A stretch of 33,154 bases of DNA from a virus: positions 1-33,154 of IMG/VR virus record IMGVR_UViG_3300020203_000057. One strand, 5' to 3'. The translations under genes and the position numbers were made by a program. The notes beneath the pieces were generated by a model. That model did no database searches. It was not told the DNA's origin and was given only the letters and a program-made list of their open reading frames with translations. Shown one piece after another: positions 1,549 through 15,488 of this stretch; positions within the stretch are counted from its first letter, which is position 1, and each line of letters opens with the position of its first letter.

Positions 1549-2355
1549 TCACGCTAGCACGTTGCGTTGAATGAGCAGCCCGGTGTCGTAGCTGCGTGTC
1601 GGGTGTGCGAACCGAAGCGTCATCGGTACCGGTCGGTCGTCGTGGTCGAGCGCACGCTCACGCCATTGCAGTGCGTGGGTCCAGCAGTTAGCGCACGTCT
1701 TGACGCCCGTGTGTGGGCATGGGGCGACGCGGCGACCTCTCGCGGACCAACTCATCGAGTCTGCTGAGGTGAGCATCCATCCGTAGCGTCGCAGCCCTTC
1801 GGACTTCACTCCGAAGCCGTGGAGTCGCAGACCGTGGAGCGAGGCGACGAGTTCGGCGATCTCGTCGGTTGCTTGTCGGCGGCACACCGAGCCGAGCCCG
1901 ACGAGGTCGCAGGCTTCGAGGTCGACGCCGGCAGTCGCGTACATCCCGATGTGTGAGTGGTAGTCGCTGATCGTCCATCCTTGCAGCACCGGGATGGTCT
2001 TGGGTTGCGTGGCGTGCAGCGTGAGGTATGACTCGATCGTGAGCGCCTGGTGCTGCTCGACGGTCTTGCCGGTCTTGGCGAGCATGAACGGTTCGCACAT
2101 CCAGTCTTGTGGCGCGCACCAGTCCAGCATCCCTATCTCGGTGTCGTAGCGCTCGATCGCCTCGGTGTACTCGGCCGGCGTCGTCTGCCATCTACCGAAC
2201 ATCGACAGCTCGGTGAACCCTCCCGAGTCGAGCGCCCATGATGTCGCCGCCTTCGGCATGGTCTTGCGCTTCGTCAGTCGACGGTGCGACACGAACAGCG
2301 GCACGGCTGGCCGTGTCAGCCAGTGCGGCATGTGCGTGCCGAGGTAGAACCTCAT
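1549..2355 (-). CDS. dpdA: DpdA-like queuine-tRNA-transglycosylase-family protein (7-deazaguanine DNA modification)
   Basis: 268 residues with TGT/DpdA-type signatures: LDSGGF at 42-47, APQDW at 81-85, VLQGW at 123-127, GLGSVCRRQ at 153-161, LHGFG at 178-182 and SADSMSWS at 197-204. A zinc-site candidate is C213, C221, C224 and H227. The family is known for exchanging guanine for 7-deazaguanine derivatives; DpdA acts on DNA rather than tRNA, which shields phage DNA from restriction. ATG at 2355 overlaps the HNH stop (ATGA). The last ~20 residues (A-H-P-T-R-S-Y-D then G-L-L) copy the end of the neighbouring HNH protein and are encoded by a 37-bp direct repeat, so the C-terminus is chimeric. 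No preQ0 synthesis genes are visible here, so the base would have to come from the host or from genes outside the window. Confidence 0.83.
   Translation of the reverse strand: MRFYLGTHMPHWLTRPAVPLFVSHRRLTKRKTMPKAATSWALDSGGFTELSMFGRWQTTPAEYTEAIERYDTEIGMLDWCAPQDWMCEPFMLAKTGKTVEQHQALTIESYLTLHATQPKTIPVLQGWTISDYHSHIGMYATAGVDLEACDLVGLGSVCRRQATDEIAELVASLHGLRLHGFGVKSEGLRRYGWMLTSADSMSWSARGRRVAPCPHTGVKTCANCWTHALQWRERALDHDDRPVPMTLRFAHPTRSYDTGLLIQRNVLA
1573..1609. repeat. 37-bp direct repeat, copy 1 (3' end of dpdA-like gene)
   Basis: Matches 2364-2400 at 36 of 37 positions. On the minus strand both copies are read in the same frame and give A-H-P-T-R-S-Y-D-(T/N)-G-L-L. The spacing between copies is 791 bp, so everything between them, essentially the whole dpdA-like gene, is bracketed by the repeat. 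Confidence 0.95.
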
Positions 2356-5579: not shown

Positions 5580-5671
5580 GAGGTAGCCGCCAGCACTACG
5601 GCGGCCGCAGAGAACAGGATCGCCAGAACGGCAAGCATCCGTGCAGTGTTGGCGTGATGGTCGGTGTTCAT
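5576..5671 (-). CDS. 31-residue single-helix membrane protein
   Basis: ATG at 5671 follows the conserved leader that ends AAGGAGCATCCACCC, as at three operon heads. An ATG at 5704, coupled to the upstream stop, would lengthen it by 11 residues. A polar N-terminus with three His is followed by one hydrophobic helix (M-L-A-V-L-A-I-L-F-S-A-A-A-V-V-L-A). Role unknown. Confidence 0.6.
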   Translation of the reverse strand: MNTDHHANTARMLAVLAILFSAAAVVLAATS

Positions 5672-5703
5672 GGGTGGATGCTCCTTGTGTTGGTGGTTGG
5701 TCA
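5672..5703 (-). promoter_or_regulatory. Conserved translation leader
   Basis: The minus-strand segment carries CCAACCACCAACACAAGGAG then CATCCACCC before the ATG, nearly the leader found at 6842, 9813 and 15451. No -10/-35 pair is seen upstream, so here it appears to act only as a strong ribosome site. Confidence 0.6.
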
Positions 5704-6841: not shown

Positions 6842-6875
6842 GGTGGATGCTCCTTCGTTGGTTGGTGGATGACTA

Positions 6876-6904
6876 ACAGTAGCAGGTGTTTACGGTGGTG
6901 TCGA
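6876..6904 (-). promoter_or_regulatory. Promoter C with partial operator dyad and leader
   Basis: Minus strand: -35 TCGACA (6904-6899), 17-bp spacer, -10 TACTGT (6881-6876) preceded by TGC (extended -10). The dyad seen at sister promoters is degenerate here (AAACA-N8-TGTTA, 6874-6891). Downstream comes the shared leader CCACCAACCAACGAAGGAG and CATCCACC just before the ATG at 6841. The -35 lies inside the last codons of the upstream gene. Confidence 0.65.
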
Positions 6905-9207: not shown

Positions 9208-9812
9208 GATCCGCTCCCGATGCCACGCTGCGAACGAGCTGCGAGCGCCGCCTCGATCCCGCCACGACCCGGCATCGCCTTGCGCGACGTCTCGACTCTC
9301 ACCGCTGGCGGCTCGTCGAGGTAGTACTCCTGGTTGAGGAACCCTTGCGGCCACTTCCTCGCCGCCGATCCCGGCTGCGCCCAGTAGACCACCCACGCCC
9401 GAAGGCCTTCGATGATCTGCTCGAACGTGTGGCCGCGACGCACCGCCGCGGCGAAGCACTCGTGCGCCTTCTTGCGTGGCCCGGTCCGGTCGTACAGATC
9501 CCAGAACACGACGAACGCTGCGTCGACTTCGTTCTTCGTCCGAACGCTGGCTAGCTCGACCGATGTGCTTGGGGAGCCGACGAGCACATAGCCCATGTGC
9601 GAGTCAGGAACGTCCCGCTCGGCGCACACCTCCCGGAGCCAGGCCTTCGTGCCGGCGTCGAGCAGTATCGATGACGGCTGCGTCGGCTGGCCCCATCCGT
9701 CGTCGATGTCGTCGGGACCGTCGAGCAGTTCGACCGGTTCGCCGTTCAACGACCCGGCGCTGATCACGATCAGCTCGCCCAGACTGTTGCGGTGAGAGTG
9801 AATGATTGACAT
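9204..9812 (-). CDS. Replication initiation (replisome organiser)-like protein
   Basis: 202 residues, ATG at 9812 with AAGGAG nine bases upstream in the shared leader. The C-terminal half carries F-W-D-L-Y-D-R-T-G-P-R-K-K-A near 110-123, a helical middle, and K-W-P-Q-G-F-L-N-Q-E-Y-Y near 168-179. This 'FW..Y....kk.A...F' to 'P..fLnq..y' layout is typical of the C-terminal domain of phage replication initiators (DnaT/DnaD-like or O-like). The N-terminal ~100 residues are not recognised. First gene of the operon from promoter A, upstream of the putative helicase loader. Confidence 0.6.
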   Translation of the reverse strand: MSIIHSHRNSLGELIVISAGSLNGEPVELLDGPDDIDDGWGQPTQPSSILLDAGTKAWLREVCAERDVPDSHMGYVLVGSPSTSVELASVRTKNEVDAAFVVFWDLYDRTGPRKKAHECFAAAVRRGHTFEQIIEGLRAWVVYWAQPGSAARKWPQGFLNQEYYLDEPPAVRVETSRKAMPGRGGIEAALAARSQRGIGSGS

Positions 9813-9847
9813 GGGTGGATGCTCCTTCGTTGGTTGGTGGAACACGA

Positions 9848-9877
9848 ACAGTAGCACGTGTTCCTAGCGTGTGTCCA
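9848..9877 (-). promoter_or_regulatory. Promoter A with GAACA-N8-TGTTC dyad
   Basis: Minus strand: -35 TGGACA (9877-9872), 18-bp spacer, -10 TACTGT (9853-9848) with upstream TGC (extended -10). A perfect-arm dyad GAACA-N8-TGTTC (9846-9863) covers the -10, so a bound repressor would block polymerase. The leader that follows contains CCACCAACCAACGAAGGAG and CATCCACCC before the ATG at 9812. Confidence 0.7.
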
Positions 9878-9911: not shown

Positions 9912-10343
9912 TCAGCACCTCGCGTGCCGCGCCGTGACGATCTTGTGTCCTCGCCGTCGACCCTCAACGAAATCATCATGAGCCTGCACGTTCCGGCCGC
10001 AGACCGAACAACGACACAGGGTTCGATTCCGGCCAGACTTCGCATCATCCCAGCGCCTCGACTCGACCTCGACAGTCCGAGCGAACACACCGCGCACGAT
10101 CACCAGTTGCGCTTCGTCGAACCGAAACCACTCGCCCCGAATGCGATGCTGCTGGAACATACGGTGCATGCGACCTTCCAACTTCGCAGCGCCGAACGTC
10201 GACGCAACGAGCGTCAACAAGTCCGGCGAACCGCACTGAAGTTCCGAAATTCGTTGCGCAACATTTCGCGCGTAACCAATCTTGAAGGCGTCACTCTCAC
10301 CTGACCGGATGAGGTACACCACCATGTCTGCTCGTTCGCTCAT
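9912..10343 (-). CDS. T5orf172/Mug113-type GIY-YIG-like nuclease with zinc tail
   Basis: 143 residues. YLI at 10-12, K-I-G-Y-A at 21-25, R31, E56, H60 and GEWF at 70-73 match the T5orf172/MUG113 branch of the GIY-YIG superfamily. A C-terminal C110, C112, C115 cluster may be a zinc finger. Such proteins are found in phages as stand-alone DNA-binding or cutting proteins. ATG at 10343 has GGAG eight bases upstream. The gene before it is across the orphan stretch; promoter A lies after it. Confidence 0.75.
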   Translation of the reverse strand: MSERADMVVYLIRSGESDAFKIGYARNVAQRISELQCGSPDLLTLVASTFGAAKLEGRMHRMFQQHRIRGEWFRFDEAQLVIVRGVFARTVEVESRRWDDAKSGRNRTLCRCSVCGRNVQAHDDFVEGRRRGHKIVTARHARC

Positions 10344-11552: not shown

Positions 11553-11869
11553 GATGGTTGCTCCTTGGTGTTTGAGTGTTCAGAATTGGTTGGCTCGGTG
11601 CTCCGGGCCTTCGACATCAGTGCTTCAAGCGTTCTGCGTGTCAGCCACTGGGGTGCAGGTATCGCGTTGACCATCATGCGTTCCACCTGCGGCCCGCCGT
11701 TGTCGATGTCGTAGCTGCCGTCGAGCATTGACGCCGCCCACGCCCGGGTCTGACGGTGCGTGTTCAGCATCAGCACGATCTCGTCGGCGATTGCATCAGG
11801 GTCGTCCTCGCCCGGGAGCACATCATCGGTGATCGTGATTGCAAGAAACAGGTTGCGTTCCCTGGTCAT
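11549..11869 (-). CDS. 106-residue hypothetical protein
   Basis: ATG at 11869 preceded by AAGGAGCAACC. It starts R-N-L-F-L-A-I-T-I-T-D-D with an acidic loop, then a helix (DAIADEIVLMLNTHRQTRAW). Its last ~10 residues (E-H-S-N-T-K-E-Q-P-S) are the in-frame translation of the next gene's leader rather than part of a fold. Not recognised. Confidence 0.6.
   Translation of the reverse strand: MTRERNLFLAITITDDVLPGEDDPDAIADEIVLMLNTHRQTRAWAASMLDGSYDIDNGGPQVERMMVNAIPAPQWLTRRTLEALMSKARSTEPTNSEHSNTKEQPS
11553..11580 (-). promoter_or_regulatory. Leader variant before the 11552 gene
   Basis: Minus strand CTGAACACTCAAACACCAAGG then AGCAACCATC precedes the ATG. It resembles the CACCAACCAAC...AAGGAGCATCC leader but lies within the 3' coding end of the upstream gene. 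Confidence 0.5.
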
Positions 11870-12648
11870 GGTTGCTCCTTGTTGGTTGGGTGTTCAGAAA
11901 TGGTCGGGCCGAAGTCGAGGATGCCCTGATCAAGTCGGTTGGCGGCGATCTCGCAATAGCGTTCGCTGATCTCAATTCCGATCGCTGCTCGCCCGGTCTG
12001 GCGGGCAGCGTCCAGAACGGAGCCCGAACCCATGAACGGGTCAACGACTACATCGCCTGGTGTAGTCGAGTAGCCGATGAGGGGCTGGATGATCCCGAGA
12101 GGCTTTTCTGTCGGGTGAATAGCGTGACCGTGGCATGATCGGACTCGCAGAACCGAGCGTTGGAGACGCGGCCCACCATCTTCGGAACGGTACGCAGACT
12201 GTTCGATGTGCCCCGTGTGTGTCGGTCTCGTCTTTCTGCGGACTGCTCGCTTGGTTGCGTCGTGCGTGTATTGCGGGGTGACATTGATGTCCGACCATCT
12301 GCCCCGATACCAGTGCGTAGCAAACTCATGCACTCGCTTGAAACGGTCGTTTGCGAAGCCGGAGCCGTTGTGTTTCTCCCATACGATCTCCTGCCCGTAG
12401 GACCATGCGTGGAAGTCGGCTGAGCGCTCGAGAAACATCCTCATCGACCCGAAGCACCAAAGCTGCCGCACGCTTGATGGGAGCGCATCAATCCATCCGG
12501 TCGGCCAGCGGTCCCATTCAAGGGACGTTTCGCCATACGGCGGGTCAGTGATGACGACAGAACCAACGTCGTTAGCGATGGCGGGCATGATGTCCCTGGC
12601 GTCGCCGTGGTAAATGGTGCAGTGATCGTCCTGGTAGTACGGCTTCAC
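11866..12648 (-). CDS. Site-specific DNA methyltransferase (N6-adenine/N4-cytosine, beta-type)
   Basis: 260 residues, GTG at 12648 overlapping the nuclease stop (GTGA). Catalytic D-P-P-Y at 35-38 precedes the AdoMet-binding D-P-F-M-G-S-G at 203-209. This order is that of the beta class (PF01555 N6/N4 methylases). The variable middle (about 70-170) would contain the target-recognition part. It lies beside a VRR-NUC nuclease; together they could look like a modification/cleavage pair, but phages commonly carry orphan methylases for protection. The end E-H-P-T-N-K-E-Q-P is the translated leader of the next gene. Confidence 0.85.
   Translation of the reverse strand: MKPYYQDDHCTIYHGDARDIMPAIANDVGSVVITDPPYGETSLEWDRWPTGWIDALPSSVRQLWCFGSMRMFLERSADFHAWSYGQEIVWEKHNGSGFANDRFKRVHEFATHWYRGRWSDINVTPQYTHDATKRAVRRKTRPTHTGHIEQSAYRSEDGGPRLQRSVLRVRSCHGHAIHPTEKPLGIIQPLIGYSTTPGDVVVDPFMGSGSVLDAARQTGRAAIGIEISERYCEIAANRLDQGILDFGPTISEHPTNKEQP
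11870..11893 (-). promoter_or_regulatory. Leader variant before the 11869 gene
   Basis: Minus strand GAACACCCAACCAACAAGGAG then CAACC before the ATG, close to the shared operon-head leader and embedded in the 3' coding end of the methyltransferase. Confidence 0.55.
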
Positions 12649-12995
12649 GGCCGCGCCCCGGTGCTTGCGGTCGCGCGTCCACCCGAGAGGGTGACCGCTA
12701 TCTCATTGATCTGCGATGGCTTCCACATCGCCCAGTCGCAGCCGGCGACGGTCAGCCACCGGCCCCACGCGACTTGCTTCGGGTCGAGTCGACCCTTCTC
12801 GGCCTTCAACTCGCGGAACAGGATCTGTCCGCTCAGCGGGTGGATCAGGACGAGGTCGGGCCAGCCGGCACCGTCAGCGCCGACCGGTGTCATGTAGACC
12901 CCGCGAGCGTTCATCGCCGTTCGGAAGTGGGCGACCTTCCAATTAAATGTCTTGGCGAGATCGAGAACGACGCGCTGAAACTCCCGCTCTGACAT
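12645..12995 (-). CDS. VRR-NUC domain nuclease (complete copy)
   Basis: 116 residues. E-F-Q-R at 5-8, G-W-P-D-L at 44-48, E-L-K-A-E-K-G at 62-68 and Q74 fit the VRR-NUC branch of the PD-(D/E)XK superfamily (a PD strand, ExK strand, then Gln). Stand-alone VRR-NUC proteins in phages are structure-specific nucleases or Holliday-junction resolvases. ATG at 12995 is inside the 3' end of the HNH gene (53-base overlap). Its first codons are noticeably less GC-rich than the surroundings (ACA TTT AAT). A truncated, diverged copy of its N-terminus lies on the other side of the HNH gene (13561-13487). Confidence 0.8.
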   Translation of the reverse strand: MSEREFQRVVLDLAKTFNWKVAHFRTAMNARGVYMTPVGADGAGWPDLVLIHPLSGQILFRELKAEKGRLDPKQVAWGRWLTVAGCDWAMWKPSQINEIAVTLSGGRATASTGARP

Positions 12996-13476
12996 TGCGG
13001 GCTTCCCTGCATGCCGCTGAGCAGTACTTGCGCTGTTCGGTTCCTTCGTACTCATCGCCGCACCAGTTGCACTGTTTCGAGAAACGTTTGACACGCATGC
13101 ACGCACGACAACCGACGACACCACGACCGGCGACAACGACGCGATCCGAGCGGGGATGATCGCAACCGGTCAGACGCACGGCGTGACCGCGGCGCACGTT
13201 CTCGCCGTGCGTCACTAAGTCCAGATGCGCCGGGTTGACACATCTGCGCACGCGACACATGTGATCCAGTTCCCGATCGGACGGAATCGCTGCGTCGTTC
13301 CAGATCACCCACATCACTCGGTGCGCTGCCTCGATACGGCCGTCGATGTTGAGTCGCCCGTACCCGGCCGGCGTGACGGACGCAGTCCACAGCCAACATC
13401 CGGTGTCGTCGATGTCGATGTAACTCATCAATCGGTCGATGAGAGGTCGCCTGGTCCCGCTGTGCTTGTTGCCCAT
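12943..13476 (-). CDS. HNH homing-type endonuclease with C-terminal zinc fingers
   Basis: 177 residues. C-W-L-W at 27-30, A-H-R at 51-53, L-D-H-M-C at 70-74, C-V-N-P-A-H-L at 79-85 and a later E-N (92-93) define the HNH_3-type homing nuclease layout. Two further cysteine sets (C105/C123/C126 and C136/C139 with C152/C156) add zinc fingers. The ATG at 13476 lies directly after the interrupted VRR-NUC start. The last ~17 residues are translated out of frame from the start of the intact VRR-NUC gene, which supplies the stop codon. It appears to be an invader of the nuclease gene. Confidence 0.85.
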   Translation of the reverse strand: MGNKHSGTRRPLIDRLMSYIDIDDTGCWLWTASVTPAGYGRLNIDGRIEAAHRVMWVIWNDAAIPSDRELDHMCRVRRCVNPAHLDLVTHGENVRRGHAVRLTGCDHPRSDRVVVAGRGVVGCRACMRVKRFSKQCNWCGDEYEGTEQRKYCSAACREARNVRAGVSARRSRSRQDI

Positions 13477-13486
13477 CCTGAGAAAT

Positions 13487-13561
13487 GTACCACCAGTGGA
13501 AGGTGTGCGCCAGCTCGATCACCTGGCGTTGGAAGTCCCGCTCCAACATGGTCGCTCCCAT
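13487..13561 (-). pseudogene. Truncated N-terminus of a VRR-NUC gene
   Basis: From 13549 the frame reads M-L-E-R-D-F-Q-R then Q-V-I-E-L-A-H-T-F-H-W, aligning residue by residue with M-S-E-R-E-F-Q-R then V-V-L-D-L-A-K-T-F-N-W of the intact copy at 12995: 12 of 21 identical by my count. The ribosome site GGGAGCGACC precedes it, and an ATG at 13561 is coupled to the upstream stop. After about 21 codons the similarity ends where the HNH gene begins, although the frame stays open by chance. Confidence 0.7.
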
Positions 13562-13836
13562 CAGTAGTAGCTCGGTCCGTACCACACGACATCGCACCGT
13601 TGGCACTTCCATCGGCCGGGACCGTCCCACGTCGACCTCGGGTGCTCGCCGTGCCCGCACTTCACGTCGAGCATCGCCTCCACACGTTCCTCGAACGTCG
13701 GGATATTGACGGTTAGCAGCGCCAGGTCGCAGTCGAGCCTCACCCACCACTCGACCCGCTGCGAGATCGTCAGGTACGGGAACAGGATCGCTACCTGCTC
13801 GATCGCGATCTCTCTCGACGTTCGCGCTGCGCTCAT
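13561..13836 (-). CDS. 91-residue protein with C-terminal zinc ribbon
   Basis: ATG at 13836 overlaps the ERF-gene stop (ATGA); a second ATG two codons earlier is less well coupled. A helical N-terminal half (REIAIEQVAILFPYLTISQRVEWW) is followed by C-G-H-G-E-H and C-Q-R-C near the C-terminus, a likely zinc ribbon. Function unknown; its position in the recombination module suggests a DNA-related role. Confidence 0.65.
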   Translation of the reverse strand: MSAARTSREIAIEQVAILFPYLTISQRVEWWVRLDCDLALLTVNIPTFEERVEAMLDVKCGHGEHPRSTWDGPGRWKCQRCDVVWYGPSYY

Positions 13837-14714
13837 GCCCATTCCGTTTCTTCGACATCGATCGCCTCGAGGGGCGACGCGTCGCTAGCGGCCACGTGCG
13901 ACGGATGCGTGACCTCGTCGACGAGCGACACATCCACCACGCCATCAGCGGGAACGTCAGCGCGTTCCTCGTCGAGTTCGTCGAGCATGCTGATCACCTC
14001 GGCCCGCCAGTCGTCGTCGCCGGCAAGGGACGACGACCGCAGTTCCTTGCCCTGGCCGTGCGCCCACTCCTTCACGACAGCCGCCTCGTCGGGTCGGGCA
14101 GCACCGAGCGTCCCCAGCCGACCGAGCAGTACACGCGTCTCGTCGACAGCGTCCTGATCCTCCACGGCGCGACGGTCGGCGTCCTCGTCGCGAGCCGAAG
14201 ATGTGTAGTCGGAGCTGTCGCCGTCATCCTTCGGGTCCGACACGCAGAACAGATGCATGATCAGGTACTTGTACGCCTGCGTCTGTCCTTTGTTCGATCC
14301 TTTGTCAGTGTGATCTCGACCGATGCCGTAGGTCGACGCGGTGACGTGCGATCCGTCCGGGCCCATGATCAGCCAGTCGAACTTGACCATCACATCCTGC
14401 CACGCCTCCTTCTGCCCCGGTGACGGATCGATCACGATCGTCTGAGCTTGCGGCACGATGACCAACCCGTGGCGGGCCATCAACGGCTGCAACGCGACGG
14501 TCATCGCTTCGATGCCCCGGAACTTGTACGGCACCCCTTTGGCTTCCTCGGTCTTGCCGATCGCCGGGAGGTCGCGCATCACCGCAGAGATCGCTGCTTG
14601 CACCGAGATGAGTTCACCGGTCGGGATTGCTGCGACCTGCGCGGCGACAGCGGCGAGCGCTTTCTCGGCTGCTCCGGTGTTCGTGTCGAACGGCTCAGCC
14701 TTCCGAGCGGTCAT
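13833..14714 (-). CDS. erf: ERF-family single-strand annealing recombinase
   Basis: 293 residues. Residues about 35-165 carry the ERF hallmarks: Y-K-F-R-G-I-E at 63-69, L-M-A-R-H-G-L near 78-84, and G-R-D-H-T-D-K-G-S-N-K-G-Q-T-Q-A-Y-K-Y at 132-150. ERF proteins bind single-stranded DNA and promote annealing in phage recombination and genome circularisation. The C-terminal ~110 residues are acidic and low-complexity, as is common for the tail that contacts SSB. ATG at 14714 overlaps the upstream stop. The adjacent Gam-like gene completes a recombination module. Confidence 0.85.
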   Translation of the reverse strand: MTARKAEPFDTNTGAAEKALAAVAAQVAAIPTGELISVQAAISAVMRDLPAIGKTEEAKGVPYKFRGIEAMTVALQPLMARHGLVIVPQAQTIVIDPSPGQKEAWQDVMVKFDWLIMGPDGSHVTASTYGIGRDHTDKGSNKGQTQAYKYLIMHLFCVSDPKDDGDSSDYTSSARDEDADRRAVEDQDAVDETRVLLGRLGTLGAARPDEAAVVKEWAHGQGKELRSSSLAGDDDWRAEVISMLDELDEERADVPADGVVDVSLVDEVTHPSHVAASDASPLEAIDVEETEWA

Positions 14715-14866: not shown

Positions 14867-15450
14867 GACGGCACCTCGGATTCGTAGCTCAGCGCGCCCG
14901 ACTCGTAGCTGACCGACCACGACGGATCGGGCAGCGAAGCGTCGACACCCGGCACTCTCTCGCCGTTCGAGTCGATCACGTTCGCCCCGGCGACCATCGC
15001 GGTGATCGACTTGACGCCCGACACGTTGATTGTGCGGCCGAGGATCTCGGGGTGGTTTGCTTCGGCCCACACCAGCAGCGCCGGCCGGTCGACGATCTCG
15101 ACGTGCGGGGTCTTCGACACTCGGATGCGCGACGTGCCGTGCGGCAGGTTCAGCGTCTTCGACGACTTCGGGTCACGTGCGAGGCGTGCCATGTGGAACG
15201 CTCGGACAGGTTCCTCGTGCCATGCGATGCGTGCGTCGAGGGTGCGTTGCCGTTCAGCGAGCCGAAGCTGCAACCGTTCGATCTCGGCACGGAACACAGC
15301 GGTGAGCTGATCGCGTTCGTGCTGATACCGGGCCGACATCGACAGGTGCCAGCTCGCCCGTTCGAGCGCTTCGGCGTCACCGGCCGGCATGCATGCGGCC
15401 TCGTCGTAGTCGACGTCGGATACGTCATCGGGGTACAGGTCAGTGTTCAT
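14863..15450 (-). CDS. Gam-like host-nuclease inhibitor
   Basis: 195 residues, ATG at 15450 after the AAGGAGCATCCACCC leader. A long helical region (about 30-80, heptad-like, Q-L-R-L-A-E-R-Q-R) is followed by T-L-N-L-P-H-G-T-S-R-I-R-V near 103-115 and V-W-A-E-A-N-H near 130. This matches Mu-type Gam proteins, which bind DNA ends and block RecBCD/AdnAB-type nucleases. First gene of the recombination operon from promoter B. Confidence 0.7.
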   Translation of the reverse strand: MNTDLYPDDVSDVDYDEAACMPAGDAEALERASWHLSMSARYQHERDQLTAVFRAEIERLQLRLAERQRTLDARIAWHEEPVRAFHMARLARDPKSSKTLNLPHGTSRIRVSKTPHVEIVDRPALLVWAEANHPEILGRTINVSGVKSITAMVAGANVIDSNGERVPGVDASLPDPSWSVSYESGALSYESEVPS

Positions 15451-15488
15451 GGGTGGATGCTCCTTCGGTGGATGGATGTACGACACGA

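What the first reader, a model, noticed from the sequence alone, without database searches (positions are those of the whole stretch)
12645..13561. HNH gene lodged between a truncated and a complete VRR-NUC start
The first 21 codons from 13549 align (12 of 21 residues) with the first 21 of the intact gene at 12995. HNH lies exactly between, beginning just after the remnant and taking its stop codon from the intact gene. The two copies have diverged strongly, so this is not a fresh duplication: the HNH and a foreign nuclease allele may have arrived together, replacing the resident gene except for its start. It looks like intronless homing with a resistant target carried along.
Basis: partly seen in the sequence, partly recalled or inferred. 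Interest (0 to 1): 0.75.

Follow-up and report, generated by a model that had tools for sequence, protein, structure and literature searches.

The report
HNH element regenerating its target's start
A phage cutting-enzyme gene sits inside the start of a DNA-repair nuclease gene, leaving the old start stranded upstream and a diverged replacement start downstream, and the same arrangement recurs next to other phage HNH genes, as if these elements carry a spare part for the gene they break into.

Summary
Codons 1-19 from ATG 13549 are a VRR-NUC N-terminus: 44.5 bits on a 36-sequence family profile, next best place in the window 6.8, shuffles at most 13.6. Homology stops at Trp19. An intact HNH_3 gene follows, then a complete VRR-NUC whose start is 12/19 identical in protein but differs mostly at third codon positions (13/19, against 6/38 at positions 1+2). 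So the two starts diverged in separate working genes; this is not a local duplication. In a survey of 124 related HNH sites, 6 (8 with a looser filter) have a stranded gene end on one side and a diverged replacement end on the other, against 3/940 control ORFs. Targets include VRR-NUC, SSB, Gp157 and tape measure. In Salmonella phage S103, the HNH plus about 40 lysozyme codons match another phage while both flanks are Jerseyvirus: HNH and gene end moved as one block and made a hybrid gene. Whether the rest of VRR-NUC is resident (hybrid gene) or also foreign is unresolved; codon usage leans weakly to hybrid. It works like fungal mitochondrial mORFs, which carry replacement C-termini. Cleavage is untested.

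The parts
13561..13842 (-). 93-aa gene with a C-terminal zinc-ribbon-like pattern immediately upstream; no database family. Context that fixes the native position of the resident VRR-NUC gene
   Evidence: ORF; no Pfam or PHROG hit
13550..13559 (-). native ribosome-binding region (GGGAGCGACC) of the stranded start, directly after the stop of the upstream gene
   Evidence: sequence
13493..13549 (-). stranded native start of VRR-NUC, codons 1-19 (MLERDFQRQVIELAHTFHW), homology ending after Trp19
   Evidence: 44.5 bits, next best in window 6.8; sharp end
13477..13492 (-). left junction / HNH leader (TGGTACATTTCTCAGG, 44% G+C), no longer VRR-NUC-like
12943..13476 (-). HNH_3 endonuclease gene, 177 aa, with C-terminal zinc-finger-like cysteines; HNH motif residues intact
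   Evidence: PF13392 34.1 bits, PHROG endonuclease 1e-29; alignment A4
12943..12995 (-). 53-bp overlap: the HNH 3' tail is read from the replacement VRR-NUC start; HNH stop TAA (12945-12943) is made of VRR-NUC codons 17-18 (TTT AAT)
12939..12995 (-). replacement (diverged) VRR-NUC codons 1-19; codon usage poorer than 99.3% of 19-codon windows of the phage's own genes
   Evidence: with the caveat
12645..12995 (-). complete VRR-NUC gene, 116 aa; conserved E3, D47 and E62-x-K64 present
   Evidence: PF08774 23.3 bits (cut-off 23.8), PHROG Holliday junction resolvase 2e-10; alignment A2; residues
13002..13008 (-). ribosome-binding site (AGGGAAG) of the replacement start, lying inside the HNH gene
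   Evidence: sequence
11866..12648 (-). DNA methyltransferase gene directly downstream of VRR-NUC (context; part of the cassette absent from the nearest kin phage)
   Evidence: PF01555; kin comparison

Best explanation
A mobile HNH endonuclease gene inserted after codon 19 of the phage's VRR-NUC gene (a Holliday-junction-resolvase-like nuclease) together with a diverged copy of that gene's 5' end. The native first 19 codons were left upstream. The downstream gene is whole again because the incoming DNA supplied a new start codon, ribosome site and at least codons 1-19. Inferred mechanism: HNH cuts the native start; the break is repaired from a donor carrying HNH plus the changed start; the changed start, with most third codon positions different, is no longer cut while the protein is kept, so the element spreads without an intron or intein and without disabling the target. 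Shown here: the anatomy, allelic-type divergence, recurrence at other genes, and block transfer of an HNH with a gene end in a related system. Inferred: cleavage, resistance, and how far into VRR-NUC the donor DNA reaches.
For: The remnant is unmistakably a VRR-NUC start and ends abruptly at Trp19. Third-position differences 13/19 against 6/38 at positions 1+2, so both starts evolved in working genes. The remnant keeps the native ribosome site 11 nt after the upstream gene. HNH is not a normal neighbour of VRR-NUC: among 184 relative loci (141 distinct proteins) only 2 have a related HNH within the flanks, neither adjacent, and none has a second VRR-NUC start. Recurrence: 124 HNH sites tested, 6 clear cases after inspection, against 3 of 940 control ORFs (Fisher p 1.4e-4), plus 2 more with a looser filter. 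L318: 29/29 residues identical but only 5 of 27 synonymous codons shared; new end AT-rich like its HNH, stranded end GC-rich like the tape-measure body. S103: HNH from about nt 650 and lysozyme to about nt 1195 match phage DUEC01, both flanks match Jerseyviruses. No structured-RNA or intron match in 12300-14000.
Against: No HNH-free allele of this very VRR-NUC gene was found; the nearest kin phage (terminase 98%) carries RusA instead. The extent of the donor DNA is undetermined: the codon-usage break is not significant once HNH's stop codons are left out, and over 8 cases the composition contrast is only a trend (p 0.098; L218, L245 and L246 do not fit). In Salmonella phage pink the lysozyme behind HNH looks like a normal HNH-free allele throughout (23/24 nt at the start), so protection by recoding is not general. 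HNH has only a weak ribosome site and lies out of frame with the stranded start, so its expression is uncertain. No cleavage data.
Confidence: 0.7

Rival explanations
1. Whole-allele replacement: HNH and a complete foreign VRR-NUC gene, perhaps with the methyltransferase, arrived as one block by intronless homing or cassette exchange, and only the first 19 codons of the resident gene survive. (A version of the same linked transfer; it differs from the best explanation only in how much of the gene is foreign.)
For: The region from within ERF to about 11575 is a cassette absent from the nearest kin, which has RusA there. The methyltransferase has off-type codon usage. In L218 (SSB) the new end resembles the body in composition and the remnant does not; in phage pink the whole lysozyme is allele-like.
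Against: Codon usage of VRR-NUC codons 20-116 and of the remnant is phage-typical while codons 1-19 are the outlier. S103 shows that the donor tract can end early in the gene.
Confidence: 0.3
2. Two ancient tandem VRR-NUC paralogues, one of which was mostly destroyed when HNH inserted; no linked transfer of HNH and gene end.
For: The two starts are each other's near-closest relatives in the family sample.
Against: No tandem VRR-NUC in 184 relative loci; the same one-sided arrangement recurs at unrelated genes and at both gene ends, which paralogy would have to explain separately each time.
Confidence: 0.07
3. Ordinary illegitimate recombination during phage mosaic evolution joined a module ending just inside a VRR-NUC start to a module beginning with HNH and VRR-NUC; HNH activity played no part.
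For: Phages are mosaic; gene-end duplications also flank non-HNH ORFs at a low rate (3/940; inspected).
Against: About 16-fold enrichment beside HNH genes (odds ratio); the junction lies at the HNH gene in each case; block transfer of HNH plus gene end seen in S103.
Confidence: 0.15

Closest known systems
Fungal mitochondrial mobile ORFs (mORFs) in atp6, atp9, cox2, nad3 (Allomyces, Glomus; PMC3630166)
   Same: Endonuclease gene inserted in a protein gene without an intron, with a diverged duplicate gene end that keeps the gene whole and the native end stranded on the far side; divergence largely synonymous; hybrid genes.
   Different: Mitochondrial, LAGLIDADG or GIY-YIG, and the C-terminus in the cases described there. 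Here: phage, HNH_3, N-terminus (both ends occur in my wider survey).
Free-standing phage homing endonucleases with intronless homing or marker exclusion (T4 SegF, SegG, MobE, PMC2988022; Skunavirus HNHs, PMC12724721)
   Same: Endonuclease gene next to or in an important gene, co-conversion of flanking DNA, expected protection by sequence difference of the neighbouring target.
   Different: Described as intergenic or gene-splitting insertions; a stranded native end plus a regenerated end is not described in the papers read here.
Split-gene insertions (Aeh1 mobE in nrdA, T4 mobA in gene 60; PMC2988022)
   Same: HNH gene inserted within a coding sequence.
   Different: There the two halves work as separate polypeptides; here the downstream gene is complete and the upstream piece is a 19-codon leftover.
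Engineered home-and-rescue gene drives (HomeR, PMC7968924)
   Same: Same logic: a nuclease cassette that targets a gene and carries a changed copy of part of it.
   Different: Engineered, CRISPR-based, in insects; an analogy of working principle only.

Membership tests
HNH_3 endonuclease family | match to PF13392 above the curated cut-off with HNH motif residues present | tested here: met
   34.1 bits against cut-off 24.8; D71, H72, N81, H84 conserved in alignment A4
VRR-NUC nuclease family | match to PF08774 above the curated cut-off | tested here: inconclusive
   23.3 bits against cut-off 23.8; PHROG Holliday junction resolvase 2e-10 and tblastn matches to phage genes annotated VRR-NUC support membership
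VRR-NUC nuclease family | PD-(D/E)xK-type conserved residues | tested here: met
   E3, D47, E62, K64 invariant in alignment A2 and present here
free-standing homing endonuclease element (intronless homing) | endonuclease gene not in an intron or intein | tested here: met
   no Rfam match in 12300-14000 at E up to 1; separate ORFs with their own starts
free-standing homing endonuclease element (intronless homing) | present in some, absent from other otherwise similar alleles of the target gene | tested here: inconclusive
   HNH absent from the flanks of 182 of 184 relative VRR-NUC genes, but these are distant; nearest kin lacks VRR-NUC altogether. Met for the Jerseyvirus lysozyme case
free-standing homing endonuclease element (intronless homing) | protein cuts the empty allele and not the occupied one; HNH inherited preferentially in mixed infection | not testable with these tools
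   needs an enzyme assay and a phage cross
mORF-like element carrying a replacement gene end | native end stranded on one side, diverged replacement end completing the gene on the other, endonuclease gene between | tested here: met
   window, plus L218, L257, L206, L224, L245, L246, L318
mORF-like element carrying a replacement gene end | native end belongs to the host lineage, replacement end foreign (hybrid gene) | tested here: inconclusive
   window: codon usage suggests it but not robustly; clear for S103 lysozyme by sequence and for L318 by composition
group I or II intron with HNH ORF | intron RNA structure and exons that join in frame | tested here: not met
   no RNA family match; the downstream gene has its own complete start, so no splicing is needed

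The most novel reading that the evidence does not exclude
Phage HNH genes of this family commonly act as natural 'home-and-rescue' elements: each carries a synonymously changed copy of the N- or C-terminal end of the gene it targets, so it can invade working genes without an intron or intein, and repeated rounds leave hybrid genes with stranded ends.
Probability: 0.5. Interest if true: 0.8.

Novelty: new variant of a known kind. Interest (0 to 1): 0.64.

Why it matters
Selfish endonuclease genes in phages face the problem of inserting into conserved genes without ruining them; introns, inteins and split proteins are the known answers. A further answer, carrying a replacement gene end, is documented here for unrelated phage genes and at both gene ends. 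It would help explain why phage HNH genes often overlap the start or end of replication, packaging and lysis genes, gives a route to hybrid gene ends, and provides a natural counterpart of engineered home-and-rescue drives that can be tested with ordinary enzyme assays and phage crosses.

Tried and rejected
Intron with HNH ORF: rejected (no RNA family match; downstream gene complete). Chance similarity: rejected. Tandem paralogy: no support. Asking which half of VRR-NUC is native by similarity: 90 non-redundant relatives give no usable correlation of start with body (cognate mean 0.21, noncognate 0.10, window about 0), so trees of the two halves have no power. Codon usage looked decisive (break after codon 18, p 0.04) but is not once the two codons that form HNH's stop are removed (p 0.34). 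No similar DNA in the phage collection; HNH and zinc-ribbon single-protein scans of viral contigs found nothing; the ERF scan found only the one kin phage. The 26-aa remnant alone is too short to find relatives. GageAP, Mcklovin, Footloose, Nappy, Superphikiman: HNH genes overlapping neighbouring gene starts or ends but no significant stranded end; Pound scored high only on a low-complexity frame. The first control for the survey was faulty (ORF trimming made the flanks overlap) and was redone. Of the 10 HNH sites scoring 56 or more, 4 were discarded by eye as tandem HNH pieces or non-coding repeats; the control was not filtered this way, which is conservative. No near relative of the Gp157 or tape-measure cases was found among named phages. 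The second HEG-like gene of the window (9912-10343) shows no convincing flanking duplication.

Full report
WHAT IS THERE. The window is a 33,154-bp virus record that encodes siphovirus-type structural genes (terminase, portal, protease, capsid, tape measure). On the minus strand the recombination genes run Mu Gam-like, 119 aa, ERF, a 93-aa zinc-ribbon-like protein, then the region of the finding, then an N6/N4 DNA methyltransferase. Between the zinc-ribbon gene and the methyltransferase lie, in order: a start codon with a good ribosome site (ATG 13549) and 19 codons of a VRR-NUC protein; 16 nt of unrelated DNA; an intact HNH_3 gene (12943-13476); and a complete VRR-NUC gene (12645-12995) overlapping HNH by 53 bp. 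HNH's stop TAA is made of codons 17-18 (TTT AAT) of that VRR-NUC gene.

IS IT MORE THAN CHANCE. I collected 88, later 184, loci encoding VRR-NUC relatives and built a position profile of their N-termini. In all six frames of the window only two places score: the remnant (44.5 bits) and the intact start (44.0). Third best is 6.8; shuffled windows reach at most 13.6. A larger profile gives the remnant 50.2 bits, above the family mean of 39.6, and shows the similarity breaking off after Trp19: columns 20-25 contribute -19 bits for the remnant and +22 for the intact gene. So the remnant is a well-preserved, recently truncated VRR-NUC start.

AGE AND ORIGIN OF THE TWO STARTS. The copies share 12/19 residues, differ at 13/19 third codon positions but at only 6/38 first and second positions, and share only 3 of 10 synonymous codons. 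Such a pattern arises when both sequences have been under selection as parts of working genes, so they are diverged alleles (or very old paralogues) brought together, not a local duplication. No tandem VRR-NUC pair and no second VRR-NUC-like start was found in 195 loci. A related HNH lies within the flanks of only 2 of 184 relatives and is adjacent in none. The remnant occupies the native position, 11 nt after the upstream stop codon with its own ribosome site, whereas the start of the modern gene lies inside HNH.

NEAREST KIN. One close kin was found (terminase 98% identical, L186/L188). Its Gam region and the genes downstream of the cassette are about 90-96% identical in DNA, but from within ERF to about window position 11575 it differs: ERF is about half identical in protein and is followed by an unrelated 112-aa protein and a RusA resolvase in place of zinc-ribbon, VRR-NUC, HNH and methyltransferase. 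VRR-NUC thus sits in an exchangeable cassette where kin use another resolvase, and this kin cannot serve as an empty-site control.

A RECURRENT ARRANGEMENT. I asked whether HNH genes elsewhere are flanked by a duplicated gene end. Loci were chosen only for encoding a relative of this HNH (80 viral contigs; named phages; genomes of two bacterial phyla). Translated flanks were compared, with mismatched pairs as the null. Clear cases besides the window: L218, HNH between a stranded SSB start and a complete SSB; L257, stranded start and complete unknown gene; and, in mirror image with the C-terminus, L206 (Siphovirus Gp157), L224 (unknown), L245 (unknown), L246 (another HNH gene) and L318 (lambda-type tape measure); families. 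In 124 tested HNH sites, 10 scored at least 56, of which 6 are of this kind after inspection; L245 and L257 were dropped by a low-complexity filter. In 940 control ORFs of similar size 3 scored that high (Fisher p 1.4e-4 for 6/124 against 3/940). In L318 the duplicated end is 29/29 identical in protein while only 5 of 27 synonymous codons are shared; the end next to HNH is AT-rich (GC3 0.33) like its HNH (0.41), and the stranded end is GC-rich (0.78) like the tape-measure body (0.64).

A TRANSFER CAUGHT IN THE ACT. In Jersey-type phages an HNH gene lies between holin and lysozyme. In Salmonella phage pink the HNH reading frame begins with the lysozyme's first eleven codons (MPNRNISDNGL) and the lysozyme restarts downstream (MRNISNNGIKFTAA); HNH-free relatives such as horsemountain and Ent1 have a continuous MSNRNISNNG(I/L)KFTAA. 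The short repeat was not significant in the blind test and is accepted only because the HNH-free relatives show the uninterrupted gene. In phage S103 the DNA up to about position 650 (holin and first HNH codons) is Jerseyvirus-like, from about 650 to 1195 (the rest of HNH plus about 40 codons of lysozyme) it matches phage DUEC01 at 26-30 of 30 bases per window, and thereafter lysozyme is again Jerseyvirus-like. HNH and the adjoining gene start therefore moved as one block of about 545 bp and made a hybrid lysozyme.

HOW FAR DOES THE FOREIGN DNA REACH IN THE WINDOW. VRR-NUC codons 1-19 have poorer codon usage than 99.3% of 19-codon windows of the phage's own genes, while codons 20-116 and the remnant are typical. 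The best break in codon usage inside VRR-NUC is after codon 18, one codon from where the remnant ends (permutation p 0.04). However, codons 17 and 18 are rare partly because they spell HNH's stop; without them the break is not significant (p 0.34). Across the eight cases stranded ends look like the gene body (+15.4 nats in sum) and new ends like HNH (-10.2), but the paired test gives only p 0.098 and L218, L245 and L246 do not follow. I regard a hybrid VRR-NUC as somewhat more likely than a completely foreign one.

MECHANISM. Most likely HNH cleaves the native VRR-NUC start near codons 19-20, and repair from a donor copies HNH with the donor's diverged start. Resistance by sequence difference would protect the element's own copy while the protein is kept. 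Cleavage, resistance and drive are inferred from knowledge of free-standing phage homing endonucleases (co-conversion and marker exclusion, PMC2988022; Skunavirus HNHs, PMC12724721), not shown. HNH is out of frame with the stranded start and has a poor ribosome site, so its expression is uncertain.

COMPARISON WITH WHAT IS KNOWN. The closest described system is the mobile ORF of fungal mitochondria: an endonuclease gene that brings a foreign, synonymously diverged C-terminus for atp6, atp9, cox2 or nad3 and strands the native one (PMC3630166). The phage papers read here describe intergenic insertion, gene splitting and introns, but not stranded and replaced gene ends; full-text searches for this pattern in phages found none, with the limit that most subscription papers and preprints are not in the library. 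I therefore call it a new variant of a known kind: it works like a phage counterpart of the mORF, here with the N-terminus.

Noticed in passing
window 5659-5699, 6842-6890, 9800-9862, 15438-15478 and 11554-11593, 11868-11907: Nearly identical leader sequences (AAGGAGCATCCACCCATG type, and a second type AAGGAGCAACCAT) precede several genes; some of these repeats also match the kin phage at several places. Resembles the start-associated sequences I recall from cluster K mycobacteriophages (own knowledge, not tested).
   Followed up: partly
window 9912-10343: Second homing-endonuclease-like gene, T5orf172/MUG113 (GIY-YIG superfamily), 143 aa. Its flanks show no convincing duplicated gene end.
   Followed up: partly
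L188 14420-15294 versus window 11575-13842: In the nearest kin phage, RusA replaces VRR-NUC at the same place: non-homologous resolvases exchanged as a cassette. ERF of the two phages is nearly identical at its N-terminus and near its C-terminus but diverged in the middle.
   Followed up: partly
window 1549-2355: Queuine tRNA-ribosyltransferase-like gene (PHROG 1279, E 6e-92) next to a second DNA methyltransferase at 498-1547; possibly a DNA-modification gene set.
   Followed up: no
L153 1206-2232; L138 757-2299; L200 minus strand 165-993: The 3 of 940 control ORFs that are also flanked by a duplicated gene end; in L153 the ORF in between is itself a VRR-NUC gene.
   Followed up: partly
L318 minus strand 1262-1992: Cleanest example of a replaced gene end: HNH (with AP2-like domain) after a tape-measure gene, 29/29 amino acids identical, 5/27 synonymous codons shared.
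   Followed up: yes
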